Shown: positions 3,735 through 43,622 of the stretch, in pieces
How the letters are laid out: the number at the start of each line of letters is the position of its first letter
How positions within the stretch are numbered: the first letter of the stretch is position 1
Assembly: GCA_035530055.1 (NCBI GenBank)
Contig: DATKVN010000093.1
Location: forward strand, 1-58,814
Length of the DNA: 58,814 nt
Source of the DNA: a bacterium
GTDB taxonomy: Bacteria; UBA6262; WVXT01
Direction of reading: 5' to 3'
The notes under the pieces: model-generated
Databases searched by the model: none
Seen by the model: the letters and a program-made list of their open reading frames with translations, nothing else
What the model was told of the DNA's origin: nothing
Position numbers and translations under genes: made by a program

Positions 3735-5465
3735 TTAAATGTTGAGTTGTGCCAGTTTCTCTTTTGTGGGTATGCCCTTTTCACTCCATCCCCGGAATCG
3801 ATAGTATTCCAGAAGAGATGCCAGAAACTCGTCTTTCTTAATATTCCTGCCCTCCACTCCTCCATCCTCTTGGAAAAACCTTTCCGGGAGGGTGTCGTCT
3901 TTATTACTGAATTTCTCTTTCAGATTGAACAATTTCTCTATATTCCAGACTCGCTCTCCTATCTCAAGCAGTCTTTCTGAGACAAAATCTATTCCGGTCA
4001 CTGCACTTAGAATATTTGCCCACTCTTCTTCTCCCACGCTGAAAAGGGCAAATTTACAAACTACCAGAGAATCGACTGCGGTGAACAGATTCTGAATAAC
4101 CTGCACAAGGCCAGACTTTCCTGAGAAAGTAAGTCTGTTTACTAGTTTGGGTTTGCCGAAAATCTCTGGACCAATCATATATGCTCTCAGATGGCATCCT
4201 CCTCTATTGGAAGTGGCATATCCTAAAGCCAATCCTAAAACTCCTCTCGGGTCATAGCCGGGTAACTCGAGACCTTTAACCTGCATGCTTATATCGGGGT
4301 TTTTGTTGACTCTGGCATATCTCATCGAGCCTTCGGATAATTCTTGACCAATCTCTTTTCTCTCACCAATTAGTTCGACTAACTTTAATAATTTTTCATC
4401 TGTGAGTTGCTTTCCGTTCAGTTCCAAATAGCAGGCAATTGTGCTTCCGGCAGTAATGGTATCCATACCATAATCATTGCAGAGTCTATTTGCTTTCATT
4501 ATTGTCTGAATGTTGGAAATCCTACAGGAGGAACCGAACATACTTATGGTCTCATATTCAGGTATTTCCATTTCCGTGTCCCTGACTTCACGCTTGCAGG
4601 CTATGGGACAAGCATAGCAGGGTGTCTTTTTTATGGAAAAAGTCGAGTTTATCTTCTCTCCAGAAATTTCCTCTGCAAAATCGAACCGGGAAAACCTGAA
4701 ATTCCCCGTGGGAAGAATCCTCATATAGTTTATCAAATTGACCAGAACTGCTGTTCCATACTGGCTAAGACCTTTGGAAGATACGGGGCTGGCTACAAGG
4801 AGCCTGGTTATGTCCTGAAAATACTTTTTGTATCTATCCCTGTCAAAGATGGGTATTTTCTTATTTCCTTTCACTACAATTGCTTTTAAATTCTTGCTAC
4901 CCATCACAGCTCCCAATCCGCCACGACCACAGGCATGGCTATAGTCGTTCATTATGTTGGCAAACCTTACTCCTTTTTCTCCCGCCTTGCCTATACAGGA
5001 AACTCTCCCGAATTTCGATAATTCCCGGGTGACTTCCCGGGTATTTTTGCCCCAGAGATGCTTTGCGTCTTTTATGGAGATTTTGCCATTATGAATCTCT
5101 ATGTATACTGGTTCCTCTGCTTTCCCGAATACTACTAATCCGTCAAACCCGGCAAACTTTAATTCGGGGCCAAAGCTCCCGCCACTGTTAGAATCGAATA
5201 TGGTGCCGGTTAGTGGAGATTTAGAAACAGTGGCATATCGTCCGGAAGTGGGGCAAGTAGTACCAGTGAGGGGTCCGGCAGCAAACACGAGGATATTTTC
5301 CGAAGAGAGTGGGTCGACACCAGGCTTCACTAAATCATAGACGAGTTTCACCCCTAGACCACGGCCTCCCAGGTAGTCGGCGAGGAATTCTTCGCCTAAT
5401 GGAATGGGCTCTATTTTCTTTTCAGTTAAGTAAACTTTTGCTATTTTCCCGTTCCAACCAAACAT
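3735..5465 (-). CDS. aor: Aldehyde ferredoxin oxidoreductase (tungstopterin enzyme)
   Basis: About 576 residues, typical for the AOR family, which oxidises aldehydes to acids with ferredoxin as acceptor using a tungsten bis-pterin and one 4Fe-4S cluster. The N-terminal domain has the family's YLGGRGLGVKL and AAGPLTGTTCPTSGRYA segments. The mid-protein CYACPIACKR gives three cluster cysteines, and a late DSLVVCKF gives the fourth. The start is the ATG at 5465, not the in-frame TTG at 5480: GGAGG lies seven bases before it, inside the last codons of the moaD-like gene, and only one base separates the two genes. This implies translational coupling and a shared role. The substrate is undetermined. 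Confidence 0.93.
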   Translation of the reverse strand: MFGWNGKIAKVYLTEKKIEPIPLGEEFLADYLGGRGLGVKLVYDLVKPGVDPLSSENILVFAAGPLTGTTCPTSGRYATVSKSPLTGTIFDSNSGGSFGPELKFAGFDGLVVFGKAEEPVYIEIHNGKISIKDAKHLWGKNTREVTRELSKFGRVSCIGKAGEKGVRFANIMNDYSHACGRGGLGAVMGSKNLKAIVVKGNKKIPIFDRDRYKKYFQDITRLLVASPVSSKGLSQYGTAVLVNLINYMRILPTGNFRFSRFDFAEEISGEKINSTFSIKKTPCYACPIACKREVRDTEMEIPEYETISMFGSSCRISNIQTIMKANRLCNDYGMDTITAGSTIACYLELNGKQLTDEKLLKLVELIGERKEIGQELSEGSMRYARVNKNPDISMQVKGLELPGYDPRGVLGLALGYATSNRGGCHLRAYMIGPEIFGKPKLVNRLTFSGKSGLVQVIQNLFTAVDSLVVCKFALFSVGEEEWANILSAVTGIDFVSERLLEIGERVWNIEKLFNLKEKFSNKDDTLPERFFQEDGGVEGRNIKKDEFLASLLEYYRFRGWSEKGIPTKEKLAQLNI

Positions 5466-5466
5466 C

Positions 5467-5694
5467 TTATCCTCCAGCAATTATCGGGAAGAGACAAAGG
5501 GTGTCCCCTTCTTGAAGGGGAGTCTCTTTTCCTTGGGTAGACTCATTGACGATAACAAGAAGAGGTTCATTCTGGGGGATCCCTATTTTGGAAAGTAGAT
5601 CTTTTACGATAGAACCTTCTTCGATATCTATCTCCAGATTGTCTCTCCGGGAAAACTTACGAACACTGGCAAATAATTTTACATTTACTTTCAA
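5467..5694 (-). CDS. MoaD/ThiS-family small sulfur-carrier protein
   Basis: A beta-grasp protein of about 75 residues ending in the diagnostic IIAGG, whose terminal glycine is thiocarboxylated in MoaD/ThiS proteins. VNVKLFASVRK opens the fold, followed by EEGSIVKDLLSKIGI and the EGDTLCLFPIIAGG tail. Its position directly upstream of and coupled to the AOR gene points to sulfur transfer for the pterin cofactor of that enzyme, a pairing seen in other anaerobes. The frame is open from a TTG at 5718; I prefer the TTG at 5694, where the homologous start KVNVKLFA falls. No ATG is available near the start. Confidence 0.85.
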   Translation of the reverse strand: MKVNVKLFASVRKFSRRDNLEIDIEEGSIVKDLLSKIGIPQNEPLLVIVNESTQGKETPLQEGDTLCLFPIIAGG

Positions 5695-13939: not shown

Positions 13940-14284
13940 TCAACCTGGAGGCCAGCCTAATTTTCGACCACCCAACAAGTGAAAATGTATGTGAAACACT
14001 GCCTGGCCAGCATCGGCATTGCAATTTGCTACAATACGGAAGCCACATTGGGCAATGCTCTCTTGAGAAGCCAGTTTTTGAGCAACTAAGTAAATCTCTC
14101 CTATTAAATCCTTGTCTTCTGAAGTTAAGTCCACAATTGTGGGAATGTGCTTTTTAGGCATGATTAAAAGGTGTACCGGAGCCTGGGGATTGATATCCCT
14201 GAAAGCTATAATCTTATCATCCTCATAAACGATATTTGCGGGAACCTTTTTGTTTACGATACCACAAAAGAGACACTCTTCCAT
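13940..14284 (-). CDS. HIT-family nucleotide hydrolase (HinT-like)
   Basis: 114 residues with the histidine-triad active site HIHFHLLGG near the C terminus and the opening CLFCGIVNKKVPA, whose CxxC can bind zinc with later histidines. HinT-type proteins hydrolyse AMP-lysine and other purine phosphoramidates; the cellular role is general. The frame runs up to 14332, but the ATG at 14284 is preceded by GGAAGGAAA and matches the family start, so I use it. It is the first gene of the rpsU-dnaG-rpoD operon, directly behind a consensus promoter (14339-14367). Confidence 0.93.
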   Translation of the reverse strand: MEECLFCGIVNKKVPANIVYEDDKIIAFRDINPQAPVHLLIMPKKHIPTIVDLTSEDKDLIGEIYLVAQKLASQESIAQCGFRIVANCNADAGQAVFHIHFHLLGGRKLGWPPG

Positions 14285-14338
14285 TTTCCTTCCAGAGCAT
14301 ACTTTGCCATTGTAATTAATACAAAATATCAACCTTTG

Positions 14339-14389: not shown

Positions 14390-15406
14390 CTATAGCTGGG
14401 AGAGTTTCTTTTTCAATAAGTTAATCATTGGGGTGGGAATGGGGTCTACAGAACTTATCAACGCTAAATAGGTGCTGACCCAATCACTAAGATATACGAG
14501 AGAATGAAGGCGAGACAGGAGAGATTTCCCGCTGGAAGTTACATGCTGGACTCCTGCTACCTTGTCTTTTAGAATACTTTCTGTTATTATGATTCTCTGT
14601 TTAATTCTTTCGTTTTCAGCACTGTCCCTCAGGAAAATTAGGTAGAATTTCTTCGTAAATTCGCTACCACTGGCCCAAACTTCAATTTCATTATGGTTCA
14701 TTTCTGGCAATAGACTGAAGAAAGCCATGCTCTTGCTATTTTCATTGAATTGGTTCTTCCAGCGGACAGCACAGGCAGCCAGATGCTCAGGAGCATATAT
14801 GAGTAGAAAATGCCCTTTTATTCTTTCCGACAGCTCCTTTGCTAAATTGGCCTTACTCCGGGGGTTATACTGTTTACACAAGAGTTGCAAATTCTGAATT
14901 GTCTCTCGAATCTCCTCTTCTTTAGAGCCAATTAATCCCAACCTTTCCAGAAGAGTAACCATGGGAAAAAATAAATACCCAAAAGTTGCCCGTGGTGGCA
15001 TGCCTCCTATAATTTCAATTATATCGATGCCATCTTTCTGACATAGTTCTTTTAACTTTCCCCCGCTGGTAATAGCTATGATCTTTGCGGAACGAGAGAG
15101 AGCATCCTGATAGGCAGATAGAGTCTCCTCGGTATTGCCCGAATAGCTGATGGCGAAGACTAAGGTATTCTCTCCTACATACTGTGGAAGGAGATAACCC
15201 CTGTTGACTTCAATGGGAATATTTGCCTCTCTCTGGAGATAGGACTTTAACAGGTCACCACCTGCTGCTGAGCCTCCCATTCCACAGACCACCACCTGGT
15301 GGATGGAGTCGTATCTTTTCACATCAATGGGATATTTCTTGGTAATTTGCACTGCCTGTTCACATTGAACGGGAAAATCTTCCAGATATTTAAGCATTTC
15401 ATTCAT
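14390..15406 (-). CDS. Bifunctional phosphoglucose/phosphomannose isomerase
   Basis: 338 residues with two SIS sugar-isomerase domains. The first holds VVVCGMGGSAAGGDLLKSYL and the serine-rich FAISYSGNTEETLSA; the inter-domain linker carries PPRATFGYLF; the second holds the signature LLPEMNHNEIE with the catalytic Glu and His. Enzymes of this family interconvert glucose-6-P or mannose-6-P with fructose-6-P. As last gene of the PTS cluster it would feed phosphorylated sugar from the mannose-family transporter into glycolysis. The usual PGI fold is not required elsewhere if this enzyme serves both roles. Confidence 0.92.
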   Translation of the reverse strand: MNEMLKYLEDFPVQCEQAVQITKKYPIDVKRYDSIHQVVVCGMGGSAAGGDLLKSYLQREANIPIEVNRGYLLPQYVGENTLVFAISYSGNTEETLSAYQDALSRSAKIIAITSGGKLKELCQKDGIDIIEIIGGMPPRATFGYLFFPMVTLLERLGLIGSKEEEIRETIQNLQLLCKQYNPRSKANLAKELSERIKGHFLLIYAPEHLAACAVRWKNQFNENSKSMAFFSLLPEMNHNEIEVWASGSEFTKKFYLIFLRDSAENERIKQRIIITESILKDKVAGVQHVTSSGKSLLSRLHSLVYLSDWVSTYLALISSVDPIPTPMINLLKKKLSQL

Positions 15407-15438
15407 TTTGGGATTAACTCTCTAACGTTGAAATAAAA

Positions 15439-17157
15439 TTATGGTAAGGCTTCGAATTTCTCTATAATTTTGTTTACTTCTTCTTCTTTTGAAGTAGCCA
15501 AAACCTGGTTGGCCAGTTCCCGAGCTGTAGTTAAGCTCGTCGAACGAACAATTTTCTTAATCTTAGGTATGGATAATGGGGACATACTGAACTCATTGAG
15601 ACCCATACCAAGGAGAAGCTTTGTAAAAGAAGGGTCTGCAGCCATTTCCCCACACATTCCCACGTGCTTGCCCACTTGATGTCCAGCATCTATTATCCTT
15701 TTGATCAGTCGCAAAATGGATAGATGCAATGGTTTGTAAAGGTGCGCGACATTTTCGTTAACGCGGTCTACTGCTAAGGTATATTGGATTAAATCGTTTG
15801 TTCCAATGCTTAAGAAATCGGCTTCTCGGGCTAGAATATCTGCAATTAAAGCAGCGGAAGGAGTTTCAATCATTACTCCTACTTCTATATTTTCATCAAA
15901 AGAGATTTCCTCTTTTCTTAATTCATTCTTTACTTCTTCGAGCAACTCATTGGCATGTCTCAGTTCCTTTGCACAAGATATCATGGGATACATTATCTTC
16001 AAATTCCCTTCTACTGAGGCGCGAAGAATAGCCCTTAATTGGGTTTTAAAAACATAAGGATATCTAAAGCAGAGCCGAATTGCCCTCAAGCCCATAAAAG
16101 GATTACGCTCCGGAGAAATGCCAAATTCGCCCACAAACTTATCTGCTCCCAGGTCCATTGTCCTGATTATCACCGGATAAGGCATCATTTTTCGAGCTAC
16201 AGAGGCATACTGTTGATATTGTTCTTCTTCCGATGGTAGATCGGCTCGATTTAAATAGATATACTCGGTACGGAATAATCCAATTCCTGTTGCACCGTGA
16301 GCATGAACCGAGGGAATTTCTTCCGGGACTTCAATATTTGCATGTAATTCAACGTTATGCTCATCAGCTGTGACTGCTGGAAGGTCTGTCAGTTTCTTCA
16401 ATGCTTCTTCAACGTTGGAATATTTTAGCTTCTGGCGTTCATAATTCTCCACTGTCACTGAATCGGGGTCGATAATAACAATTCCTTCTATTCCGTCTAT
16501 GATTATTGTGTCACCTAGCTTGACTTTTTTAGTTACATTTTTCAAACCTACTACAGCAGGAATCTCTAAAGATTGTGCCATAATCGCGGTATGCGAAGTC
16601 CTTCCTCCAATATCTGTAGCAAATCCTATCACATTCTCTTTGCGCATAGCAATCGTGTCGGCAGGAGTAAGATTATGAGCGATTACAATTACTGGCGATG
16701 GGAGAGTAGCCAGTTCTTCCCTTTCCCGGCCAAGTAGGCGCTTCAATACTCTTTTCACCACATCCAGAATGTCACGACCACGGTCCCGTAGGTATCCGTC
16801 ATCGATTATATTGAAAGTCTTTGTTATTTTATCAAATACCGTCTGGAGAGCGTATTCGGCATTTACCCTTTGCTCTGTAACCATTTTTGTGACGTCATTT
16901 CGAATAATAGGGTCCTGCAAAACTAGGAGATAAGCATCAAAAAGACGTACGTGTCTCTTACCAAGTTGCTTCAAAGCTTTCTGCCTTATTCCGTCCATCT
17001 CCTCCCTTGTCTCAGCAACTGCTTTGCGAAAGCGAATAATTTCCTGTTTTATATCAGCAGGGTCAATTGTTCTCTTGGAAATATAGAATTCTTCTTCTTC
17101 GAGGAGGAAAGCTCGTCCAATCACAATACCAGGTGAAGCAGCAATTCCTTTTAACAT
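15439..17157 (-). CDS. ptsI: PTS enzyme I (phosphoenolpyruvate-protein phosphotransferase)
   Basis: 572 residues, the usual length. The N-terminal HPr-binding helical domain is followed by the phospho-histidine segment GGRTSHTAIMAQSLEIPAVV, then the PEP-binding barrel with GIGLFRTEYIYL, NPFMGLRAIR, and the C-terminal FLSIGTNDLIQYTLAVDR and GMCGEMAAD. It transfers phosphate from PEP to HPr at the start of sugar uptake. It lies five bases after HPr, whose stop codon region supplies AGGAG upstream of the ptsI ATG; the pair is clearly co-translated. Confidence 0.97.
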   Translation of the reverse strand: MLKGIAASPGIVIGRAFLLEEEEFYISKRTIDPADIKQEIIRFRKAVAETREEMDGIRQKALKQLGKRHVRLFDAYLLVLQDPIIRNDVTKMVTEQRVNAEYALQTVFDKITKTFNIIDDGYLRDRGRDILDVVKRVLKRLLGREREELATLPSPVIVIAHNLTPADTIAMRKENVIGFATDIGGRTSHTAIMAQSLEIPAVVGLKNVTKKVKLGDTIIIDGIEGIVIIDPDSVTVENYERQKLKYSNVEEALKKLTDLPAVTADEHNVELHANIEVPEEIPSVHAHGATGIGLFRTEYIYLNRADLPSEEEQYQQYASVARKMMPYPVIIRTMDLGADKFVGEFGISPERNPFMGLRAIRLCFRYPYVFKTQLRAILRASVEGNLKIMYPMISCAKELRHANELLEEVKNELRKEEISFDENIEVGVMIETPSAALIADILAREADFLSIGTNDLIQYTLAVDRVNENVAHLYKPLHLSILRLIKRIIDAGHQVGKHVGMCGEMAADPSFTKLLLGMGLNEFSMSPLSIPKIKKIVRSTSLTTARELANQVLATSKEEEVNKIIEKFEALP

Positions 17158-17162
17158 AACCT

Positions 17163-17429
17163 CTACTCCTCATCAAATTTTTTTGCAAATAACTCTTCTA
17201 TTTTTTTTATGGCTTCTTTTTCATCTTTTCCATTAACAATTACTGTTATCTCAGAACCGAACTCTGCTGCCAACATCATAATTCCCAAAATGCTATCTCC
17301 GTCAACTTCCTGGCCATTTTTAATTATGGCTACTTTTGATTGGAGCTTAGCGACAGTCTGGGCAAGAAGTGCCGCAGGTCTTGCATGTAGACCTAATTTA
17401 TTCTTTATTTTAAAATTTTTTTCTATCAT
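17163..17429 (-). CDS. ptsH: PTS phosphocarrier protein HPr
   Basis: 88 residues. GLHARPA carries the EI-phosphorylated histidine at exactly position 15, and GDSILGIM carries serine at position 46, the site used by HPr kinase/phosphorylase. Both sites being intact, and hprK being encoded upstream in the same cluster, indicates real dual control of this HPr rather than a regulatory remnant. The start ATG at 17429 has only a weak ribosome-binding site. Confidence 0.97.
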   Translation of the reverse strand: MIEKNFKIKNKLGLHARPAALLAQTVAKLQSKVAIIKNGQEVDGDSILGIMMLAAEFGSEITVIVNGKDEKEAIKKIEELFAKKFDEE

Positions 17430-17444
17430 TAAACATTCCCAATA

Positions 17445-18230
17445 TCAGAATATATAGGCTCCTACGCAGGAAATTCCAATAAGCAAATACAAAAGCTTTG
17501 CGGAAGAAATTCGCCAGCGATTAAGTAAGACAACCGAAAAGAAGAACGCTAAAAAGTATAGTCTTTCTATCGCTCTCCAGTCCCGAAACAGTACTACTAC
17601 AACAGTGAGTAAAACAAGAGCTAAACCAATAAGATGGCTACTCCATATTGTACGAAGATAATGCATTTTCTCAAGAAGTCTTACCACTTTAGTCTTCTTT
17701 TCATAACCTTTCATCACTCCTTTAATGCGAGTATGAAAGTGCAGAAAATTATAGAGAAATAGAAAAATTAGTGGCGCCAGCCAGGCGCCTTCCCACTTCT
17801 TTAAATATATAATCACCAGAACGCAAGCTACCAATGCAGTAAAGGGTCGCCACGCTCCCCAAAATAGTGAATCGCCAATACCTCCGAATGCTCCGCCCAT
17901 ACTCATCTTTACTGTGCTAATTTCTTCCGGTTTGACCTCTCCTCCCTTTGCCATTTCTTCTTCCAGACGCGCGACTATCCCTACTAACACATTTGCAAAG
18001 TATGGATGGGTATTGAAAAATTCTAAATGTCGCTTATAAGACTGGATCCTTTTCTCTTTTTCAGGATAGAGCTTATTCAGAACCGGTGCCAATATGTAAA
18101 GAAATCCCAAGTTTTGCATCCGCTCGAAATTCCATACAGATTGCACACAAAAGGACCTCCAGCAAAGACGATATAAATCGAGTTTCTTGATTATTCTATT
18201 GTCCATTGGATTATACATCCCGATTTTCAA
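17445..18230 (-). CDS. PTS mannose-family transporter subunit IID
   Basis: About 255-261 residues. The N-terminal half is the conserved cytoplasmic EIID domain (CWRSFCVQSVWNFERMQNLGFLYI, then MGGAFGGIGDSLFWGAWRP); the C-terminal half has four or five hydrophobic helices. With EIIC it forms the membrane channel that imports and phosphorylates hexoses. The open frame begins with TTG at 18230, overlapping the EIIC stop; ATGs at 18218 and 18206 are more likely starts. The overlap carries a hairpin TCCCGATT/AATCGGGA that could tie its translation to EIIC. Confidence 0.92.
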   Translation of the reverse strand: MKIGMYNPMDNRIIKKLDLYRLCWRSFCVQSVWNFERMQNLGFLYILAPVLNKLYPEKEKRIQSYKRHLEFFNTHPYFANVLVGIVARLEEEMAKGGEVKPEEISTVKMSMGGAFGGIGDSLFWGAWRPFTALVACVLVIIYLKKWEGAWLAPLIFLFLYNFLHFHTRIKGVMKGYEKKTKVVRLLEKMHYLRTIWSSHLIGLALVLLTVVVVLFRDWRAIERLYFLAFFFSVVLLNRWRISSAKLLYLLIGISCVGAYIF

Positions 18231-18919
18231 TCGGGAAATCTGTACCTAAAACCTCTGAAGGTGTTAAAAGCTATTGCTAAACCCAGAGCGGGTATGAGCC
18301 TATATGCAAAATTCAGACCTGTCAATACGCCATACGGTAAACAGGAAAATAATTTGGGCAGAAAATATACCCCGGCACTAATTGCAATCAGAGAGAAAAG
18401 GAATCCTTTAAGAAAAAACAGAAATAAGCTAAAATAATTAACTTTTCCCAAGGCTTTTAAATTACCTTTGGGGATTTCTCGATCTAAGTAGTGCACGAAA
18501 TGTGCATTTAGTTTTCTTTGCTTAATATCTATGCGCGTAAAAATTTCTCCCAGAGGCATCGTAAGTGCCAGGACAACCATTCTGTAAGAACCCTGAAAAT
18601 TATTACCCAGGGGAAGCATTCTCTCGGTCAACATTATCAGAGTTGTGCAAGTTACTGCTACTATTGTTGCATCAGGAGGAATAGCTGCGCCCACAGATAT
18701 CACATTTATCCAAATGAGTTCTAAAAGAACACCAATAATGAGTCCTGTCTTGAGGTCTCCTAATAATAAACCTATGAGGGGTCCACAGACAATAGGCCGG
18801 CAGACCATTATTTGTCCCCAAGCACTTACATCTAAACTTAACAATCCTCCAATAAAACTAGCTACAAAGATTTCAACAATCATTAGAACGGTCCAACGTA
18901 GATATATTGACAGGTTCAA
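18227..18919 (-). CDS. PTS mannose-family transporter subunit IIC
   Basis: 230 residues, nearly all membrane-embedded. Family features include CGPLIGLLLGDLKTGLIIGVLLELIWI and the conserved GAAIPPDATIVAV loop. EIIC forms the sugar-translocating part of the mannose-family permease together with EIID, which it overlaps by four bases. The apparent start is TTG at 18919 with AGGTG just upstream; no ATG lies nearby. It follows the GH57 gene closely, so the GH57 gene is inserted between the soluble EIIA/EIIB genes and the membrane subunits. Confidence 0.92.
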   Translation of the reverse strand: MNLSIYLRWTVLMIVEIFVASFIGGLLSLDVSAWGQIMVCRPIVCGPLIGLLLGDLKTGLIIGVLLELIWINVISVGAAIPPDATIVAVTCTTLIMLTERMLPLGNNFQGSYRMVVLALTMPLGEIFTRIDIKQRKLNAHFVHYLDREIPKGNLKALGKVNYFSLFLFFLKGFLFSLIAISAGVYFLPKLFSCLPYGVLTGLNFAYRLIPALGLAIAFNTFRGFRYRFPD

Positions 18920-18933
18920 ACACCTGGGCTAAA

Positions 18934-21144
18934 TCATATATCTGTGATTTTTAATTTCAAAGTGATAGTCTGTTTCTCTTTGGGTTTTAGATTTAATTTC
19001 CAGTGAGGAAATACAACTGATTGTTGATACATACGCTCGTAAGCTGCATCTCCTTCTGAGATTGTTTCTATGGGAAAATGCCACAAACAACAATGTGGGT
19101 TGAATTCCAAAGTTATATTTATTCCATAATGCTCGTCGTGCATACCAATTTCCTTCAAATCAGAAATTTCTCCAAATGAAGAGAAATCTTTTTTCTCCTT
19201 TCTATCGGGGACATAATAATAACATTTTTTATCTTCTGCTGAGGAAAAAGAGAAGTTAAATTCAGAACCGAACCATAATTCTGCGCGGTTCTCTCCTTTG
19301 TTGACAATTTGATAAATAATGATAATTTTCGCCGAGTTCGCTGATACTGTTATTTTCTTTTCCACTTTTATGGGTTGCTGAAAATCTCCTACCCAGACAA
19401 ATCCTTCTCTAACAAAGTTTATTCCAGTCGGTTCAGTTCTATACATGTAAGATTGGTCGACGAAATCTCCCTGTTCTCCATACTGGCAAGTTGAGAAATC
19501 AAAGATCTCTGTATCAGGATGTAAGAAATGGTCTACCAAGGAGGCCCTTTCATACCAATCATAGTGAAGATATTTCACCAAGTTCTTGTCTTTTACTTTT
19601 TCCATATTATGAATTGATTTTACACTTTTATTTTCCATATCGGATTTAGAATCAAAGAGACTGGCTCGAACAATCTCTTCGTGGTAAGCTTCTTTCCTTC
19701 GAGTCAGAGTAGTTAGCAGATTTAAGTTTTGTGGCTTATAATCTAATTCGAATAGAGATGCTCCCATAGATGGTTTAAAGTAGGCATTGAGTAAGGGGGT
19801 ACTGACCAAAACCTCTGGATTTCCATCCAGGTCGAAATCGAATTCCTCTGTTTCTATACATTTAGAACCTGTTTGGTTCTTACCATCAACAGTTTTTTCT
19901 GCATTAATCAGATGTTTATAAATCGCTTTTCTAAGATGGGGAAAGTAGAGTCCTCCGAAAACGCCATGCCAGTAAGCGCAATTGCACTGGCCTTTCCAGA
20001 GTTCATCCCTCGCTTTTTCCAACCAATCTGGAAGTTCTACATTTCCTCCCCTAAATTCCACTGAAAACTCACTTCCTTTTTTATTACTCCCTCTTTCCGA
20101 GGCGTGTATGTTCTTAGCTGCTTTGAAAATCTTGTTGCTAACTAACAGCATCTTCTTCTGCATCCAGTTACTCTCGGTGTATTTCACAAAGAAGTTTCGC
20201 CAGAAGCCTCCTTTCAGAAACCTTGCATATCGTTCGGACTGAGGCAATTTTTCAACTTTCCTCTGGATATCAGTAAATTCCTTTCTCGCCTTAGTGGGTA
20301 AAACCCATTCCATCATTTGGGAATAGGAACCTGTGGGAAGATATATTCTTCCTTTAGGTTCAAACTGGGCAATGCATTCAGAAAAAGTAACTGTTCTAAT
20401 CCATTTTTTATTTCTTTCTAATTCGGTAAAGAACTGCTCAAGCCAATTCTGTTTATAGGCTAGCTCATAGGTGCCTGGCCAGAAGCCAAACTTCTCTCCG
20501 TCATCAGCCATTACTACCAGTCTCTCTTCTTTCTCCGCTGCCTGGGATTTAAAATACTTAATGACTTCTTCTACGGGATGGAAAGGCATGAGAAATCGCA
20601 GCTTTTCACTAATTGGAAAAACTTTGAGAGGATAGCCCTGTTCCTCGGTAAGATAATACCCAAAAAGTTGTTCCTCAAAAAGCCCGGCAGATTTGAAAGG
20701 CAAATCGTCAATGACAGTATATTCTACACCTGCCTGAGAAATTGACTTTGCTAAATGTGGCTCCCAGACACGTTCTGCCAGCCACATACCTTTTGGTTCG
20801 TAATCAAACAAGTCCCTGATATATTTGTTCAATTTCATTATTTGACCAATTCTATCACGGTCGTATAACATAGCTAAAATTGGTTCATAGTAACCACCGG
20901 TCATAAGTTCAATTTGCTCGGTTTGTAAAAGATTCTTTATCATTGAAATAAATTCTGGGTGATGTTTAACAATCCACTCCAGAAGGACTCCGCTAAAATG
21001 GAAAGTCGCTTTTATGCCAGAATGTTTTATCAGAACTTCCAGAAAGGGAAGGTACGCCTTCTGGTAAGCCTCCTCAAAAATGGCTTCAAAATTACCAACT
21101 GGCTGATGGTTATGAATACCGAATGCGAAGTTTATTTTTTTCAT
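18934..21144 (-). CDS. GH57 4-alpha-glucanotransferase / amylase
   Basis: 736 residues with the complete GH57 plan: catalytic barrel beginning FAFGIHNHQPVGNFE (motif 1), YYEPIL (motif 2), WLAERVWEP with nucleophile E124, VVMADDGEKFGFWPG with acid/base D214, and the motif-5 tryptophan region. The C-terminal beta-sandwich domains follow (DUF1925/DUF1926 type). Positions 124 and 214 line up with the known Thermococcus litoralis 4-alpha-glucanotransferase residues 123 and 214. No signal peptide, so it acts in the cytoplasm on glycogen or maltodextrin. Its location inside the PTS operon links stored glucan to the same phosphosugar pool. Confidence 0.93.
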   Translation of the reverse strand: MKKINFAFGIHNHQPVGNFEAIFEEAYQKAYLPFLEVLIKHSGIKATFHFSGVLLEWIVKHHPEFISMIKNLLQTEQIELMTGGYYEPILAMLYDRDRIGQIMKLNKYIRDLFDYEPKGMWLAERVWEPHLAKSISQAGVEYTVIDDLPFKSAGLFEEQLFGYYLTEEQGYPLKVFPISEKLRFLMPFHPVEEVIKYFKSQAAEKEERLVVMADDGEKFGFWPGTYELAYKQNWLEQFFTELERNKKWIRTVTFSECIAQFEPKGRIYLPTGSYSQMMEWVLPTKARKEFTDIQRKVEKLPQSERYARFLKGGFWRNFFVKYTESNWMQKKMLLVSNKIFKAAKNIHASERGSNKKGSEFSVEFRGGNVELPDWLEKARDELWKGQCNCAYWHGVFGGLYFPHLRKAIYKHLINAEKTVDGKNQTGSKCIETEEFDFDLDGNPEVLVSTPLLNAYFKPSMGASLFELDYKPQNLNLLTTLTRRKEAYHEEIVRASLFDSKSDMENKSVKSIHNMEKVKDKNLVKYLHYDWYERASLVDHFLHPDTEIFDFSTCQYGEQGDFVDQSYMYRTEPTGINFVREGFVWVGDFQQPIKVEKKITVSANSAKIIIIYQIVNKGENRAELWFGSEFNFSFSSAEDKKCYYYVPDRKEKKDFSSFGEISDLKEIGMHDEHYGINITLEFNPHCCLWHFPIETISEGDAAYERMYQQSVVFPHWKLNLKPKEKQTITLKLKITDI

Positions 21145-21181
21145 ATTCTCAAAATTCCCGAGAGGGACTTGAAATTTGTGT

Positions 21182-21208
21182 ACGCAGACTAAAGTCTGCT
21201 ACTCCTAC
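21182..21208. repeat. GTAG hairpin repeat, GCAGACT family
   Basis: Stem GCAGACT / AGTCTGC followed by TACTCC; on the minus strand GGAGTAGCAGACT. The EIIB stop codon TAG lies at its edge. Other copies at 22123 and 33007. Confidence 0.82.
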
Positions 21209-21693
21209 GTTGCCTCTCTCTTGATAATTTCCATTATATCAATCTTTTCATCATCAGGAACCATTCTCGCTTCCAAGTGGACTCCAAGTTTATCCAGTTC
21301 CTGAAAAGCTTGAATGTCTTCTTTACTAACTGAAATAGCTTTGAGAATCTGTTTTTTATCAGGAGAATAATGCATTCCCCCCACATTTACTTCTTTTATT
21401 CTTACTCCTTTATTGATTAAATTCAGGACATCCTGGGGTGAAACGAGAAGGAGCATCGCCTTATCCCCTTCAAATTGGCCATTCAGTATCGCCTCCTTCG
21501 CTTGAGTTATAGTCAAAATGGATATCTTGGCGTGGGCTGGAACTGCCATTGAGAACAGGGTTTTTTGCGTTCGGTCACTGGCAACAAAGTCGTTGACTAC
21601 AATCACATGATTAATTTTCAGGAATTTCATCCAGTTTTCAACTACTTGACCGTGAATTAACCGGTCATCAATTCGCACTAGAACCATGCCCAT
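21205..21693 (-). CDS. PTS mannose-family transporter subunit IIB
   Basis: 162 residues, normal size. The N-terminal VRIDDRLIHGQVVENW carries the phosphorylated histidine H14; VNDFVASDRTQKTLFSMAVP and the conserved NVGGMHYS follow. EIIB takes phosphate from EIIA and gives it to the incoming sugar at the EIIC/EIID channel. Its ATG overlaps the EIIA stop by one base (TAATG), so the two soluble subunits are made in equal amounts. Its own stop codon sits at the border of a hairpin repeat. Confidence 0.95.
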   Translation of the reverse strand: MGMVLVRIDDRLIHGQVVENWMKFLKINHVIVVNDFVASDRTQKTLFSMAVPAHAKISILTITQAKEAILNGQFEGDKAMLLLVSPQDVLNLINKGVRIKEVNVGGMHYSPDKKQILKAISVSKEDIQAFQELDKLGVHLEARMVPDDEKIDIMEIIKREAT

Positions 21694-22118
21694 TATTTAT
21701 TTTTCGCCTTTGAGACTTTATCAAGAAACTTTTGCTTGACATCAAGAATGCTCTGTTCACCCTTTTGGCGGATGAGACGAGCCAATTCTTTCAGAGGGAG
21801 AGACTGGCGATAGTTCATGCCAGCAATTAGCATCGGCAAATTAACTCCACTAATAATTTCAACTTTCTCATCATTAACAAACTTGAGGCTGGCATTTGCC
21901 GGTGTACCTCCAAACATATCCACGAAAATGATTTTCCCTTCCGATTGCTCGTTCTCTTCCTTTAGTATCTTTTCTATCCTTTTACTTAATGTTTCTAACC
22001 CATCATTTTCATGTAAGGATAATGCCCATACTTCCTTCTGCTCTCCTAAAATAACCTGCGCTGCTTTAACTAACTGCCGACCAAAATCGCCGTGAGTTAT
22101 AATAATGAATCCAATCAT
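21693..22118 (-). CDS. PTS mannose-family transporter subunit IIA
   Basis: 141 residues. The opening MIGFIIITHGDFGRQLVKAA carries the phosphorylated histidine H9, and VDMFGGTPANASLKF is the family's second signature. EIIA accepts phosphate from HPr. The gene is separated from rapZ by a GTAG hairpin repeat (22123-22147) but otherwise follows it directly, so it likely belongs to the same transcript as hprK-rapZ. Confidence 0.95.
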   Translation of the reverse strand: MIGFIIITHGDFGRQLVKAAQVILGEQKEVWALSLHENDGLETLSKRIEKILKEENEQSEGKIIFVDMFGGTPANASLKFVNDEKVEIISGVNLPMLIAGMNYRQSLPLKELARLIRQKGEQSILDVKQKFLDKVSKAKNK

Positions 22119-22122
22119 TTGA

Positions 22123-22147
22123 TACGCAGACTGAAGTCTGCTACTCC
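22123..22147. repeat. GTAG hairpin repeat, GCAGACT family
   Basis: TACGCAGACT / AGTCTGC plus TACTCC, nearly identical to 21182-21208 and 33007-33028. It lies between rapZ and EIIA. Confidence 0.82.
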
Positions 22148-22160
22148 TATAATGCTTTCT

Positions 22161-23030
22161 TTATGCCGATTTTTCAATGTCACGGTACTGAGTTTTAACA
22201 GGGTACTTCTTTCCCAGAAACTTATTCAATTCATTCACAACAATTACTGAACGATGGCGCCCTCCCGTGCACCCCACAGCTATGGTCAAATAAGATTTTC
22301 CTTCTTTAATATAGTAAGGAATTAGAAATTTCAATAACCCAGAATATTTCCTCAAAAACTTCTGGGTAACAGAGGATTTCAAAACAAATCGGGAAACTTC
22401 CGGATTGTTTCCGGTTAATGGTCTCAGTTTTTCTATATAATGGGGATTAGGTAGAAAACGAGTGTCGATTACCAGATCGGCGTCAACCGGGATACCATAT
22501 TTATAGCCAAAAGCAACTAGGCTGACATTCATCGTATCCAGTTCCGGTACCTCTCTGAAACTAGAAAAGACCGCTTGCTTAAACTCCTGAGGCATGAGAG
22601 TTGTAGTATCAATGATTTTATCAGCTTGTTCTTTTATTCCCATAAGTCTCTTTCTCTCTTTGATGATAACCTCAAGTATACTTCTTCCTTCCTTATCCAG
22701 GGGATGTTTCCTGCGCGTTTCACTATATCTTCTCACCAGGACAGAATTACTGGCTTCTAAAAAGAGAATCTGGTGGCTGAATCCCATTTTACCGAGTTCT
22801 TCTAATGAACTAAAAAGGTCATCTAAAAAGTCTCCTTCTCGAATGTCAATGCCTAAAGCGACTTTCTTTATTTTATACTTCAACTGTAAACAAATTTCAG
22901 CAAATTTAGGTATCAGGGTAGTAGGTAAATTATCTACGCAGAAATATCCCAAGTCCTCAAAATTCTTTAAGGCTGTACTTTTCCCTGCTCCTGAAAGCCC
23001 TGTTATTATGACAAAGTTACCCTTGGCCAT
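22161..23030 (-). CDS. rapZ: RapZ / YvcJ-family nucleotide-binding protein
   Basis: 289 residues with an N-terminal P-loop kinase fold (Walker A GLSGAGKST) and the conserved C-terminal RapZ domain (VDTRFLPNPHYIEKLRPLTG, then VGCTGGRHRSVIVVNEL). In E. coli RapZ guides an RNase to the sRNA GlmZ and so controls glucosamine-6-P synthase. In Firmicutes YvcJ binds GTP. Here the gene lies between hprK and the EIIA gene, a PTS-linked context also common in other bacteria, which fits a role in sensing cell-wall sugar supply. Confidence 0.94.
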   Translation of the reverse strand: MAKGNFVIITGLSGAGKSTALKNFEDLGYFCVDNLPTTLIPKFAEICLQLKYKIKKVALGIDIREGDFLDDLFSSLEELGKMGFSHQILFLEASNSVLVRRYSETRRKHPLDKEGRSILEVIIKERKRLMGIKEQADKIIDTTTLMPQEFKQAVFSSFREVPELDTMNVSLVAFGYKYGIPVDADLVIDTRFLPNPHYIEKLRPLTGNNPEVSRFVLKSSVTQKFLRKYSGLLKFLIPYYIKEGKSYLTIAVGCTGGRHRSVIVVNELNKFLGKKYPVKTQYRDIEKSA

Positions 23031-23373
23031 ATATTTCTATTTTCCTTCCTTTCCCTAATGCGAAGGGATTTGGTGTGCAGCGAGCATTATAATTTTTAGC
23101 CAAAAATCGAAGATTAGAGTTTAGCCGAAACTGACCGTAGGGAATTTCGGTAAACTCCTGAGATTTTTGGCGGTGCTCAAAGAAGATATTCCCTTCGGGA
23201 ATACTTCCATAGGGGTTTCACCCCTCTGGCGTTCACCAAATGTCCACCGGACATTTGCTTCTCTGTCACCCCTTAGGGGAAATCAGATTATTTCCCCCAA
23301 ACCCCCTAATCCGCATCCCGATTGTTATCGGGATGCTTACAAAAAATTGTCAGCGAGCGAACCAAATCCCGAG
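23031..23373. repeat. 343-base spacer packed with palindromes, flanked by an 8-base direct repeat
   Basis: No gene. From left: a long two-step hairpin (outer arms GCCAAAAATC / GATTTTTGGC at 23099 and 23162; inner arms GAGTTTAGCCGAAA / TTTCGGTAAACTC). Then come five more hairpins: TATTCCC/GGGAATA (23187-23203), AGGGGT/ACCCCT (23211-23225), CAAATGTCC/GGACATTTG (23237-23257), ACCCCT/AGGGG (about 23268-23280), GCATCCCGAT/ATCGGGATGC (23313-23336). CAGCGAGC occurs on both sides (23078-23085 and 23351-23358), like a target-site duplication around a 265-base insert. Confidence 0.65.
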
Positions 23374-24318
23374 CTACTTCTTTTCTTTCTTTCGCTGGGT
23401 GATTTTTATTATTTCCTTATCCAACTCACTAATTGCGGAATATCCCTCTCTTCTTAGTCGCTGATTCATAGCTGCTACCTCAATAATCCTCGCTATGTTC
23501 CTTCCAGGACGAATCGGGATTACTAATTCCGGAACATTAACTTCCAGAATCGTTGTATATTTCTGGTCGAAACCAAGTAGTTCGTACTCTTTGATTTTGT
23601 CCCACTCTTCAAGTCTAATTACCAGATCGATTTTTGCCGAATTTCTTACCGTACTTGCTCCAAACAATTTTTCAACATCTATTATTCCCAGTCCTTGGAC
23701 TTCTAAATAGTAGCGGATCGGTTCCTTGGCAAAGCCAATAAGAATGTTGCCCCTACGCTGTTTAATTCCTACTACTTCTCCAGCAATTAAACGATGTCCT
23801 CTATCGATAAGTTCCAGGGCACACTCGCTTTTGCCAATGCCAGTCACTCCTAATATCAAAATCCCAAGACCGTAAACTTCAACCATCACTCCTTGAACAG
23901 ATTTAGTGAGTGTAAGTCTATCCTCTAAAAAAGGCGAAAGGCGATTTACGAATGTAGAAATAGAAATGGAGGTTCTAAAGACCGGAATTTTCGCTTTCTG
24001 CGCCATTTTTATAAATTCTTGAGGAGGAGCAAAATTGCTGGTAACAATAAAACATGGGATTCCCTTGGAGAAGATCCCGCTTAACACAGTGGCTTTTCCC
24101 TTGATGTCTAACTTCTTTAAATAATCTAGTTCTTCCCGGTCTAAAATCTGGAGTTGACCAGGAGGTAAAATATCTGCCTCGCCAGATAACGCAAGGCCAA
24201 GACGATGAACTTCCCAGCTGGTTATTTTCCGATTTAAACCTTCCTTTCCAGCCACAAGCTGCAAATTTAACTCTGCCTTTTTCTGTTTAAGTAATTCTTC
24301 AACCAGAAGCTTTACCAT
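23374..24318 (-). CDS. hprK: HPr kinase/phosphorylase
   Basis: 314 residues, the usual length. The N-terminal DRTGG-like domain is followed by the C-terminal kinase domain: Walker A GVTGIGKSECALELIDRGHRL and the HprK signature EVQGLGIIDVEKLFG. It phosphorylates HPr on Ser46 when glycolytic intermediates are abundant and removes the phosphate when Pi is high. HPr in this window keeps Ser46, so enzyme and substrate match. It lies between ptsN and rapZ and is separated from rapZ by a 343-base repeat-filled spacer. Confidence 0.96.
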   Translation of the reverse strand: MVKLLVEELLKQKKAELNLQLVAGKEGLNRKITSWEVHRLGLALSGEADILPPGQLQILDREELDYLKKLDIKGKATVLSGIFSKGIPCFIVTSNFAPPQEFIKMAQKAKIPVFRTSISISTFVNRLSPFLEDRLTLTKSVQGVMVEVYGLGILILGVTGIGKSECALELIDRGHRLIAGEVVGIKQRRGNILIGFAKEPIRYYLEVQGLGIIDVEKLFGASTVRNSAKIDLVIRLEEWDKIKEYELLGFDQKYTTILEVNVPELVIPIRPGRNIARIIEVAAMNQRLRREGYSAISELDKEIIKITQRKKEKK

Positions 24319-24355
24319 TGTGAACTGACCTCTTATTTGTTCACCATTGCACTAA

Positions 24356-24820
24356 CTAATATGCATCTTCTTCCTTGATAATTTTAACTACTTCACTTGG
24401 GACTTTTGCTTCTCGTAGTGCCTGGCGAAAGAACTTATCCTTAAGAAGCCGGGATATTTTTGCCAATACTTTCAGATGCATCCCTGCCGAGTCTTGGGGA
24501 GCGATCAGGAGAAAAATTATATATACCTTTTCTCCATCTAAAGCATCAAATTCTATTCCCTTTCTGGATGTAGCAAATGCACAGACGATTTCTGTTACTT
24601 TATCTGTTTTAGCATGGGGAATTGCTACCCCCTGTCCAATCCCGGTGGAACCTAATTTTTCTCTATCCAATAGAGCCTGAAGTATTTTTTCTTTTGCATT
24701 TTCTTTTATCCTCTTGGCAACCACCAACTTATCAATTAACTCTTTCAGCGTCTCTTTCTTTTTGATTGCTTGTAAATCTACTTCAATGGCCTCTTTGCAA
24801 AGAAACCCCATAATCTTCAT
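24356..24820 (-). CDS. ptsN: PTS IIA component of the fructose/nitrogen type (PtsN-like)
   Basis: 154 residues of the EIIA(Fru/Ntr) fold. The phosphorylated histidine is in GIGQGVAIPHAKTD, followed by the family's IIFLLIAPQDSAGMHLKVLAKISRLL. No EIIB or EIIC part is attached, and it sits with hprK and rapZ, which favours a regulatory PtsN-type role over transport. The ATG at 24820 has a strong GGAGGA upstream. It is the first gene of the PTS cluster, behind a promoter at 24874-24902. Confidence 0.92.
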   Translation of the reverse strand: MKIMGFLCKEAIEVDLQAIKKKETLKELIDKLVVAKRIKENAKEKILQALLDREKLGSTGIGQGVAIPHAKTDKVTEIVCAFATSRKGIEFDALDGEKVYIIFLLIAPQDSAGMHLKVLAKISRLLKDKFFRQALREAKVPSEVVKIIKEEDAY

Positions 24821-24873
24821 CTTTTTCTCCTCCTATGCAGAATGGTCTTTTTTTTCATTATTTTTGCTTTATA

Positions 24874-24902
24874 ATTAAACTACATTTTAATAATTTTGTC
24901 AA
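24874..24902 (-). promoter_or_regulatory. Promoter of the ptsN-hprK-rapZ-PTS cluster
   Basis: Minus strand perfect TTGACA (24897-24902), 17-base spacer, TTTAAT (24874-24879), giving a leader of about 45 bases to the ptsN ATG. Confidence 0.65.
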
Positions 24903-24917
24903 TTACCAGAATTTTCT

Positions 24918-25008
24918 GGAGTAGCGAAACTTGTTTCGCATTAACGCACCGCAAGCGGTGCTACTCCAATTTTCTACTCCTAAGACGCAGGCTGAAGCCT
25001 GCGACTAC
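24918..25008. repeat. Three GTAG hairpins between lptB and ptsN
   Basis: GGAGTAGCGAAACTTGTTTCGC (read in two arms, GCGAAAC / GTTTCGC, 24918-24939), GCACCGC/GCGGTGC plus TACTCC (24945-24967) and ACGCAGGCT/AGCCTGCG plus ACTAC (24985-25008). The first two face each other, a BIME-like pair. Confidence 0.75.
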
Positions 25009-25012
25009 GTTT

Positions 25013-42281: not shown

Positions 42282-43622
42282 TTATACGTAGGTGAGCAGG
42301 TTTTTTGCTAATATGGCACTCTTTTCGGCAGCTCCCTTATGCGCCTTAACTATTTCCAGAGCAGTCCTTCCCATTCTTTCTAATTCTTCGGGATTTGATA
42401 ATAACTTAAGGATACTGTTAACTAGCTCTTCTCTATTAGATACTACTCTTCCTGCTCCCCGGGAAATAAAAGATTGAGCTATTTCTTCAAAATTGTCCAT
42501 ATAGGGACCGAAGAGGACCCCCTTTCCTAAACTGGCCGGCTCGAGAATATTGTGCCCTCCCACAGGAACCAGGCTTCCACCTACAAAGACAATTTTTGCC
42601 AGAGCATAGAAATGAGTGAGCTCGCCAATGGTGTCCAGGAGAATAATCTGATTTAGATTGTTGCCATGAAATGGAGAAGAAAGTTCTGACCTTCTGGTGA
42701 ATTTAAAATTTCTGCTATTCAGCAACTTTTCCACTTCGTTTACTCTCTGCATATGGCGGGGCGCAAGAATTAAAACTATCTGAGGATAAGACTTTTTAAT
42801 TTCTCCATAAACATCAAGGATTGTCTCTTCTTCTCCCCTATGCGTGCTACCGGCAACAAAAATTACCTTGCTTTCGCCAGGACTCCAGAATTGTTTGGAG
42901 TCCTCCCGAAAGGAAGGAAGGTAGTTATCTTTTGAATCAAGAAGAATGTCAGTGCCTACATCAAACTTCAAATTTCCTGTTACAGTGACTGTTGAGGAAT
43001 TAGCTCCCAATGAGATAATCCGCTCTGCATCCATTTGACTCTGCATAATAAATAGGTCGATATTTTCCAGGACTCTGTTCATCAAGAACTTAACCATTTT
43101 ATACTTTCTAAAAGAGCCCGTAGAAATCCTTCCGTTAGCTACCATTATGGGAACTGTTCTTTTCTTTGCTTCCCTTATGAAATTCGGCCAGAGCTCTGTT
43201 TCGGTTATAATCAACAATTTTGGTTTGATGGTATCGAGAACTCTTCTCACTATGCAGGAGAAATCAAGAGGAAAGTAAATGAATGCCCGGGCATCGGGAA
43301 TTACCTTTCTAGCCATAGTTTGACCAGTAGTGGTTAATGTGGAAATAACAAAATCGTAATCAGGGCATTCCTTTTTAATGGCTCTTATTAAATTCCCCAT
43401 GGCTACTACTTCGCCCACGGAAGCGGCATGGGCCCAAATGAGGTTTTCATTTCTTGCTCTGTTTATGCTTTTATTCAAAAAACCTAATCTCTGTTTCAGC
43501 CCTTTTCTTATTTTCTGAATAAAAAATGGCCAGAAGATAGAGAAGAAGAAAACTAAAAGAATCTGGTAAAAAGTCCAGAAGAAATCGAACTTTTTAATCT
43601 TGCCTTTCACGGGTTTTTCCAT
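42282..43622 (-). CDS. waaA: Kdo transferase WaaA (KdtA) with a repeat-derived insertion
   Basis: 446 residues. One N-terminal membrane helix, then the family landmarks: IWAHAASVGEVVAMGNLI, ETELWPNFIREA, ANGRISTGSFRKY, TVTGNLKFDV, VFVAGSTHRGEEE (quoted as AGSTHRGEEE), ILAPRHMQRV, GGSLVPVGGHNILEPASLG. WaaA adds Kdo from CMP-Kdo to lipid IVA and belongs to GT30. Between LKFDV and AGSTHRGEEE it has about nine residues more than E. coli WaaA, and this stretch (LPSFREDSKQFWSPGES) is encoded by two opposed GGAGTCC repeats at 42866-42917 without breaking the frame. It is followed one base upstream by the DUF3108 gene. Confidence 0.95.
   Translation of the reverse strand: MEKPVKGKIKKFDFFWTFYQILLVFFFSIFWPFFIQKIRKGLKQRLGFLNKSINRARNENLIWAHAASVGEVVAMGNLIRAIKKECPDYDFVISTLTTTGQTMARKVIPDARAFIYFPLDFSCIVRRVLDTIKPKLLIITETELWPNFIREAKKRTVPIMVANGRISTGSFRKYKMVKFLMNRVLENIDLFIMQSQMDAERIISLGANSSTVTVTGNLKFDVGTDILLDSKDNYLPSFREDSKQFWSPGESKVIFVAGSTHRGEEETILDVYGEIKKSYPQIVLILAPRHMQRVNEVEKLLNSRNFKFTRRSELSSPFHGNNLNQIILLDTIGELTHFYALAKIVFVGGSLVPVGGHNILEPASLGKGVLFGPYMDNFEEIAQSFISRGAGRVVSNREELVNSILKLLSNPEELERMGRTALEIVKAHKGAAEKSAILAKNLLTYV
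42866..42917. repeat. Opposed GGAGTCC repeat pair inside waaA
   Basis: Plus strand: CCTTGC-TTTC-GCCAGG-ACTCCA (42866-42887), an 8-base spacer GAATTGTT, then TGGAGTCC-TCCC-GAAA-GGAAGG (42896-42917). The first arm matches the left half of 41114-41168 with one change; the second matches the copies at 2962 and 8076. Both are read as protein. Confidence 0.88.

What the first reader, a model, noticed from the sequence alone, without database searches (positions are those of the whole stretch)
14390..24902. Complete mannose-type PTS with HPr kinase, RapZ, PtsN and a GH57 enzyme in one operon of an LPS bacterium
Seen: ptsN-hprK-rapZ-EIIA-EIIB-GH57-EIIC-EIID-HPr-EI-sugar isomerase, all one direction with short gaps or overlaps, behind one clear promoter. 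HPr has both His15 and Ser46. Known: HprK/Ser46 control is best studied in Firmicutes; in diderms it is often regulatory only. The GH57 gene with intact E124/D214 is inserted between soluble and membrane PTS subunits. Inference: sugar uptake, its feedback by HprK and cytoplasmic glucan turnover are run as a single unit here. I know of no described system with this exact order.
Basis: partly seen in the sequence, partly recalled or inferred. Interest (0 to 1): 0.58.

Follow-up and report, generated by a model that had tools for sequence, protein, structure and literature searches.

The report
Sugar-uptake operon with glucan enzyme
A bacterial sugar-uptake operon carries a starch- or glycogen-remodelling enzyme among its transport genes, an arrangement that recurs in several distant groups of bacteria, while the operon's usual feedback kinase seems to have lost its active site here.

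Summary
The operon is real (minus strand, 14390-24820): ptsN, hprK, rapZ, EIIA, EIIB, GH57, EIIC, EIID, HPr, EI, PGI/PMI. Two details fail: hprK and rapZ are 343 bp apart, and a scan finds no promoter-like site upstream of ptsN. The lpt-ptsN-hprK-rapZ-PTS block is a known ancestral cluster. The GH57 enzyme, nearest solved relative Thermococcus 4-alpha-glucanotransferase, is the unusual part. EIIB-GH57-EIIC recurs in Elusimicrobiota, Firestonebacteria, Eisenbacteria and Krumholzibacteria. In 149 Elusimicrobiota genomes, 72 carry this GH57 type and all 72 have a copy inside the PTS operon; nine of those have no permease genes there, and GH57 then directly precedes HPr-EI. This points to coupling with the phosphocarrier chain rather than import of a GH57 substrate. 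It is not universal: the sister family lacks GH57, and six distant genomes carry GH57 and EIIC apart. GH57 does not track glycogen synthase. hprK remains under purifying selection, so it may be a pseudokinase.

The parts
24356..24820 (-). ptsN (EIIA-Ntr type)
   Evidence: ORF; conserved place between lptB and hprK in relatives; not scanned against Pfam here
23374..24318 (-). hprK, HPr kinase/phosphorylase homologue with degenerate active site (H140Q, D178G, D179E, R206Q, R245L; K161, S162, E204 kept)
   Evidence: Pfam/NCBIfam; PDB alignment; residue table; comparison; dN/dS
23031..23373 (.). 343-bp hprK-rapZ spacer with stem-loops; about 100 bp in two congeners
22161..23030 (-). rapZ
   Evidence: NF003828, above cut-off
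21693..22118 (-). EIIA, mannose class (THG histidine present)
21205..21693 (-). EIIB, mannose/sorbose class (DDRLIHGQ histidine present)
18934..21144 (-). GH57 enzyme, 4-alpha-glucanotransferase type, E124 and D214 present
   Evidence: (1k1w, E 4.7e-152)
18227..18919 (-). EIIC, mannose class
   Evidence: 7dyr/6k1h
17445..18230 (-). EIID, mannose class; C-terminal part diverged
17163..17429 (-). HPr, His15 and Ser46 present, residue 45 Asp instead of Lys; only HPr of the genome
15439..17157 (-). EI (GGRTSHT histidine and GMCGEM cysteine present)
14390..15406 (-). bifunctional phosphoglucose/phosphomannose isomerase
   Evidence: (NF006426, TIGR02128 above cut-off)

Best explanation
This is a sugar-transporting mannose-class PTS in the ancient lpt-ptsN-hprK-rapZ-EIIA...HPr-EI cluster, into which a GH57 4-alpha-glucanotransferase-type gene was inserted between EIIB and EIIC and then kept. 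Shown: gene content, conserved order across several phyla, and survival of the GH57-HPr-EI link when the permease genes are absent. Inferred: sugar enters as a 6-phosphate through EIIABCD and is passed to fructose 6-phosphate by PGI/PMI; the GH57 enzyme rearranges cytoplasmic alpha-glucan; its amount, and perhaps its activity, is set together with the phosphorylation state of HPr or EIIA, in the way that E. coli HPr controls glycogen phosphorylase. Inferred also: in this genus HprK no longer works as a normal Ser46 kinase/phosphorylase and is kept for another role, for instance as an ATP-binding partner of HPr.
For: Families. Recurrence: 21 of 80 GH57 loci have EIIB-GH57-EIIC exactly: 9 Elusimicrobiota, 3 Firestonebacteria, 2 Eisenbacteria, 4 Krumholzibacteriota, 1 unlabelled that groups with them, and 2 records of the window's genus. 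Elusimicrobiota survey of 149 genomes: EIIC in 126, this GH57 C-domain in 72, both in 62, adjacent on one strand in 62 of 62; of the other 10, nine have GH57 followed directly by HPr-EI and one ends at the contig edge with EIIA-EIIB-GH57. No EIIC elsewhere in seven genomes with such permease-less loci, while Pfam does recognise the EIIC of four linked loci. EI tree places the window's order inside the Elusimicrobiota branch (99/95 within 100/99). Some Elusimicrobia add GH57 branching enzymes to the same operon. HprK; HPr position 45; dN/dS of hprK 0.157 against 0.047-0.297 for the eight other genes compared with L030. Precedent for HPr control of glycogen phosphorylase: PMC11046441 and PMC5320558 (passages).
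Against: The link is not universal. The sister family (G004, G005) has the PTS without any such GH57. Of ten genomes with both genes in the relatives set, only the four of this genus have them together. In Elusimicrobiota 64 of 126 EIIC genomes have no such GH57. GH57 presence does not track GT5 glycogen synthase: 55 of 72 with GH57 and 61 of 77 without have it, Fisher p = 0.70. No protein contact was tested. D179E keeps a carboxylate, so some HprK activity may remain.
Confidence: 0.5

Rival explanations
1. Operon inertia: GH57 was inserted once or a few times and is simply co-transcribed with a housekeeping sugar operon; there is no control at the protein level.
For: Gene order in this block is conserved anyway; the linked groups cluster on the GH57 and EI trees.
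Against: Nine permease-less Elusimicrobiota keep GH57 next to HPr-EI, and none of the 72 genomes has the enzyme only outside the operon. The permease-less rows need several separate changes on the EI tree. None of this excludes simple co-expression.
Confidence: 0.33
2. Transport-coupled breakdown: EIIABCD imports an alpha-linked oligosaccharide and GH57 cleaves or rearranges the imported, possibly phosphorylated, product.
For: GH57 lies between the soluble and membrane subunits; PTS operons often carry the hydrolase for their substrate (general knowledge).
Against: GH57 stays with HPr-EI in genomes with no EIIC at all. The nearest solved relative acts on unphosphorylated maltodextrins (general knowledge of 1k1w).
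Confidence: 0.12
3. HprK is still a working kinase/phosphorylase with an altered active site, and the reader's Ser46 feedback is right.
For: P-loop Lys161, Ser162 and metal ligand Glu204 are kept; D179E keeps a carboxylate; hprK is under purifying selection.
Against: His140, Asp178, Arg206 and Arg245 are all replaced in four of four genomes of the genus examined, while 30 of 30 HprKs and 29 of 29, all outside the genus, keep Asp178, Asp179 and Arg206; HPr Lys45 is Asp only in this genus.
Confidence: 0.25

Closest known systems
Ancestral rpoN/ptsN/ptsK/ptsI cluster of Proteobacteria, with mannose-class IIA or IIABCD (Comas et al. 2008, PMC2405797, passages; PMC3162934 of 2011, passages)
   Same: lptABC neighbours, ptsN, hprK, rapZ (yhbJ), mannose-class EII genes, HPr and EI in one cluster
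   Different: no rpoN or hpf between lptB and ptsN here; GH57 inserted; PGI/PMI at the end; degenerate HprK
Mannose-type PTS of Endomicrobiaceae (PMC11257099, passages)
   Same: mannose-type PTS proposed as glucose uptake; Endomicrobia loci here carry EIIB-GH57-EIIC (L091, L104)
   Different: the passages read do not mention GH57; the genus here is a different lineage
E. coli HPr control of glycogen phosphorylase (PMC11046441 and PMC5320558, passages)
   Same: a PTS phosphocarrier controls an alpha-glucan enzyme
   Different: different enzyme family; genes not in one operon there (recalled); no contact tested here
Thermococcus litoralis 4-alpha-glucanotransferase (PDB 1k1w; species recalled)
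   Same: similarity over both halves of the chain and the catalytic region
   Different: bacterial, with an extra linker of about 37 residues, PTS-linked

Membership tests
Mannose-class PTS permease (EIIABCD) | EIIA, EIIB, EIIC, EIID of the mannose/sorbose families, with phosphorylatable His in EIIA and EIIB | tested here: met
   Pfam over cut-off; histidines seen; EIIC/EIID match ManYZ structures. NCBIfam full-length cut-offs are not reached by EIIA, EIIB, EIIC and EIID
Mannose-class PTS permease (EIIABCD) | transport and phosphorylation of a hexose | not testable with these tools
   needs uptake assay
HPr kinase/phosphorylase | HprK family match and P-loop GxxxxGKS | tested here: met
   TIGR00679 above cut-off
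HPr kinase/phosphorylase | active-site residues His140, Asp179, Arg245 (with Asp178 and Arg206) | tested here: not met
   Q, E, L (G, Q) in window, L028, L029, L030; residue roles from PMC9399212 passages
HPr kinase/phosphorylase | ATP-dependent phosphorylation of HPr Ser46 | not testable with these tools
   needs enzyme assay
GH57 4-alpha-glucanotransferase type | GH57 domain plus AmyA-gluTrfs middle and C-terminal domains, catalytic Glu and Asp | tested here: met
   PF03065, PF09094, PF09095 over cut-off; E124 and D214
GH57 4-alpha-glucanotransferase type | transferase rather than amylase activity | not testable with these tools
   the family holds both activities
Bifunctional phosphoglucose/phosphomannose isomerase | SIS domains, PRK08674 family | tested here: met

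The most novel reading that the evidence does not exclude
A PTS-gated glucan switch: the phosphorylation state of HPr or mannose-class EIIA directly controls a GH57 glucan enzyme encoded inside the same operon, a role old enough to outlive the permease in several Elusimicrobiota; and in this genus HprK has become a pseudokinase that senses ATP and holds HPr, or the enzyme, without phosphorylating it.
Probability: 0.25. Interest if true: 0.77.

Novelty: new variant of a known kind. Interest (0 to 1): 0.55.

Why it matters
Control of storage-glucan enzymes by the PTS is known from E. coli HPr and glycogen phosphorylase. Here many members of one phylum and several candidate phyla have built a glucan enzyme into the PTS operon itself, and some keep it where the transporter is absent, which makes the coupling directly testable with purified parts. 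A natural HprK without its catalytic residues, kept under purifying selection next to an HPr with a changed Ser46 neighbourhood, would separate the kinase's catalytic role from any binding role.

Tried and rejected
Correlation of GH57 with GT5 glycogen synthase in 149 Elusimicrobiota: no association, so I do not claim a glycogen-storage role. Glycogen genes of the window's genome: a GT5 synthase and a GT35 phosphorylase-family match exist elsewhere, as do three further GH57 genes, none near PTS genes that my profiles recognise. Repeat search for the hprK-rapZ spacer: no second full copy in the 58.8-kb window or the own-genome loci held, only a 19-base match. RNA families: only a tRNA in the window. 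Structure prediction was not run, because the folds are clear from sequence and no complex can be predicted here.

The Elusimicrobiota survey is a sample of 149 genomes whose completeness was not told. One search examined 30 and searches examined 40 of the 126 EIIC genomes: 28 of 30 and 16 of 40 have GH57 upstream. The 40 were chosen by me down the ranking of the remaining 96. The residue counts hold 37 rows, one of them the reference, and count two contigs twice: L108 and L111 repeat L028 and L029; rows shorter than 200 residues were left out by the script. The one non-genus row without Arg245 (L125) may be an alignment slip. In one search the L041 row (no full open frame found) and the truncated L030 row were dropped. 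In one search L108 and L111 were left out as duplicates of L028 and L029. In one search, 8 of 79 rows have gaps at the catalytic columns, probably because the profile match was cut.
Full report
What is there. Pfam and NCBIfam place ten of them firmly: HprK, RapZ, EIIA, EIIB, GH57 with the middle and C-terminal domains of the 4-alpha-glucanotransferase group, EIIC, EIID, HPr, EI and a bifunctional phosphoglucose/phosphomannose isomerase. PtsN was read from its sequence and its conserved place. The PTS histidines are in place in the alignments of EIIA, EIIB, HPr and EI. The gaps are short or overlapping except between hprK and rapZ, where 343 bp lie; two congeners have about 100 bp there. No promoter-like site is listed upstream of ptsN.

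A known block. The same neighbourhood, lptC-lptA-lptB, ptsN, hprK, rapZ, EIIA-EIIB-EIIC-EIID, HPr, EI, in whole or in part, appears in unrelated genomes of the relatives set without GH57. Comas et al. 2008 (PMC2405797, passages) and PMC3162934 of 2011 (passages) describe the ancestral rpoN cluster with ptsN, hprK, lptABC and mannose-class PTS genes. So the PTS-HprK-RapZ part of the finding is already known.

GH57 in the block. I searched named genomes with the GH57 protein (the best 80 of 584 confirmed loci are kept). After annotating the loci with profiles built from the window's proteins, 21 of 80 have exactly EIIB-GH57-EIIC, 9 are partial, 38 unlinked and 12 undetermined at contig ends. The 21 are 9 Elusimicrobiota, 3 Firestonebacteria, 2 Eisenbacteria, 4 Krumholzibacteriota, one unlabelled genome that groups with these, and two records of the window's genus. 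On a GH57 tree of 79 rows the linked label needs 5 changes against 19.3 in shuffles.

Elusimicrobiota survey. To avoid the bias of searching with GH57, I searched 149 Elusimicrobiota genomes with EIIC (126 have it) and, separately, with the C-terminal domain of this GH57 type (72 have it). In 62 of 62 genomes with both, GH57 lies directly upstream of EIIC on the same strand, 26-290 bp away between the matches. Of the ten with GH57 but no EIIC, nine have GH57 followed directly by HPr and EI, and one runs into a contig end after EIIA-EIIB-GH57. So 72 of 72 have a copy in the PTS operon; a second match on another contig was seen in one genome (G209). 64 genomes have EIIC without such a GH57, and 13 have neither. 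The seven genomes of loci L032, L033, L044, L101, L097, L060 and L088, whose clusters lack a permease, have no EIIC match anywhere; four linked EIIC proteins score well with the same Pfam model, so the model is sensitive enough.

Limits of the link. It is not general. In the set of 60 relatives (own genome included), 27 have this GH57 type and 20 have EIIC; ten have both, and only the four of this genus have them together. In one of these four, G001, an extra open frame of about 700 bp sits between GH57 and EIIC. The sister family (G004, G005) has the PTS block and no such GH57 at all. On the EI tree the window's genus and this sister family are together (99/95) and lie inside the Elusimicrobiota branch (100/99), with Firestonebacteria next to it (85/89). 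The simplest reading is an old insertion with loss in the sister family, but transfer of the operon is not excluded.

What it does. The GH57 protein matches a solved 4-alpha-glucanotransferase over both halves of the chain (1k1w, E 4.7e-152) and keeps Glu124 and Asp214; all 71 of 79 rows aligned at these columns keep both. No signal peptide is visible at its start, so I take it as cytoplasmic (by eye). Because GH57 stays next to HPr-EI when the permease is absent, import of a GH57 substrate by EIIABCD is unlikely to be the reason for the link. Coupling to the phosphocarrier chain is more likely, at least by co-expression and perhaps by contact. The precedent is E. coli HPr, which binds and controls glycogen phosphorylase (PMC11046441 and PMC5320558, passages). 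Some Elusimicrobia add GH57 branching enzymes to the operon (L035), which fits a glucan role. Against a storage-glycogen role: GT5 glycogen synthase is found in 55 of 72 genomes with GH57 and in 61 of 77 without.

HprK. PMC9399212 (passages) lists His140, Lys161, Asp179 and Arg245 as the active site of HPrK/P, with Ser162 and Glu204 binding magnesium. In an alignment of 37 rows, the window and its congeners (6 rows, 4 genomes) have Gln140, Gly178, Glu179, Gln206 and Leu245, while Lys161, Ser162 and Glu204 are kept. All 30 loci outside the genus keep Asp178, Asp179 and Arg206, 29 of 30 keep Arg245, and 28 of 30 keep His140; the two with Gln140 are the sister family. In 29 further Elusimicrobiota HprKs all keep Asp178, Asp179, Arg206 and Arg245. 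The neighbour of the target serine in HPr, residue 45, is Asp only in this genus; 37 of 38 HPr rows outside it have Lys and one has Arg (L091, which has no hprK beside it). In the 75 further Elusimicrobiota rows 71 have Lys and 2 Arg, and the other 2, read off register by the script, show Lys on inspection. The hprK gene is nevertheless intact in all four genomes and its dN/dS against L030 is 0.157, within the range of its neighbours (0.047-0.297). A kinase-dead but retained protein fits these facts best; a weakened or altered kinase cannot be excluded, since D179E keeps the carboxylate.

Print. Searches for GH57 with PTS or HPr kinase terms, and for Elusimicrobia with PTS or glycogen terms, listed no paper that by its listing describes this link; the two papers are reviews of glucans, of which I read passages of one. 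The library holds open-licence papers only, and the Elusimicrobium minutum genome paper is not held. PMC11257099 (passages) names a mannose-type PTS as glucose uptake in Endomicrobiaceae.

Noticed in passing
window 14367-14339 (minus): Perfect 12-of-12 sigma-70-like promoter TTGACA-17-TATAAT just before the HIT gene (13940-14332), suggesting that HIT, rpsU, a DNA glycosylase-like gene and a DHH-like gene (names by eye) form the next unit.
   Followed up: partly
window 23031-23373: The hprK-rapZ spacer carries several stem-loops and is about 250 bp longer than in two congeners.
   Followed up: partly
window 24821-25012: The lptB-ptsN gap holds a dispersed repeat; copies of up to 60 bp at 90% identity lie elsewhere in the genome, several on the locus with the glycogen synthase match (L161).
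   Followed up: no
L108 12455-13258 (same contig as L028): In one congener an open frame that looks like a small SAM methyltransferase (by eye) sits between GH57 and EIIC.
   Followed up: no
L035 5627-7267 and 8301-10004: Some Elusimicrobia carry one or two GH57 branching enzymes (BE_C domain) and a DUF4912 protein in the same PTS operon.
   Followed up: partly
L028, L029: Congeners are labelled Clostridia in their records, but the window carries lptA/lptC-like genes and a Kdo transferase (42282-43622), and its EI groups with Elusimicrobiota; the label is probably wrong.
   Followed up: partly
window 3735-5480 (minus): Aldehyde ferredoxin oxidoreductase, a sign of anaerobic metabolism.
   Followed up: no
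L060, L088: In a Sumerlaeia and a Zixibacteria genome hprK is the only PTS-block gene my searches recognise beside this GH57 type, upstream of it; neither genome has an EIIC match.
   Followed up: no
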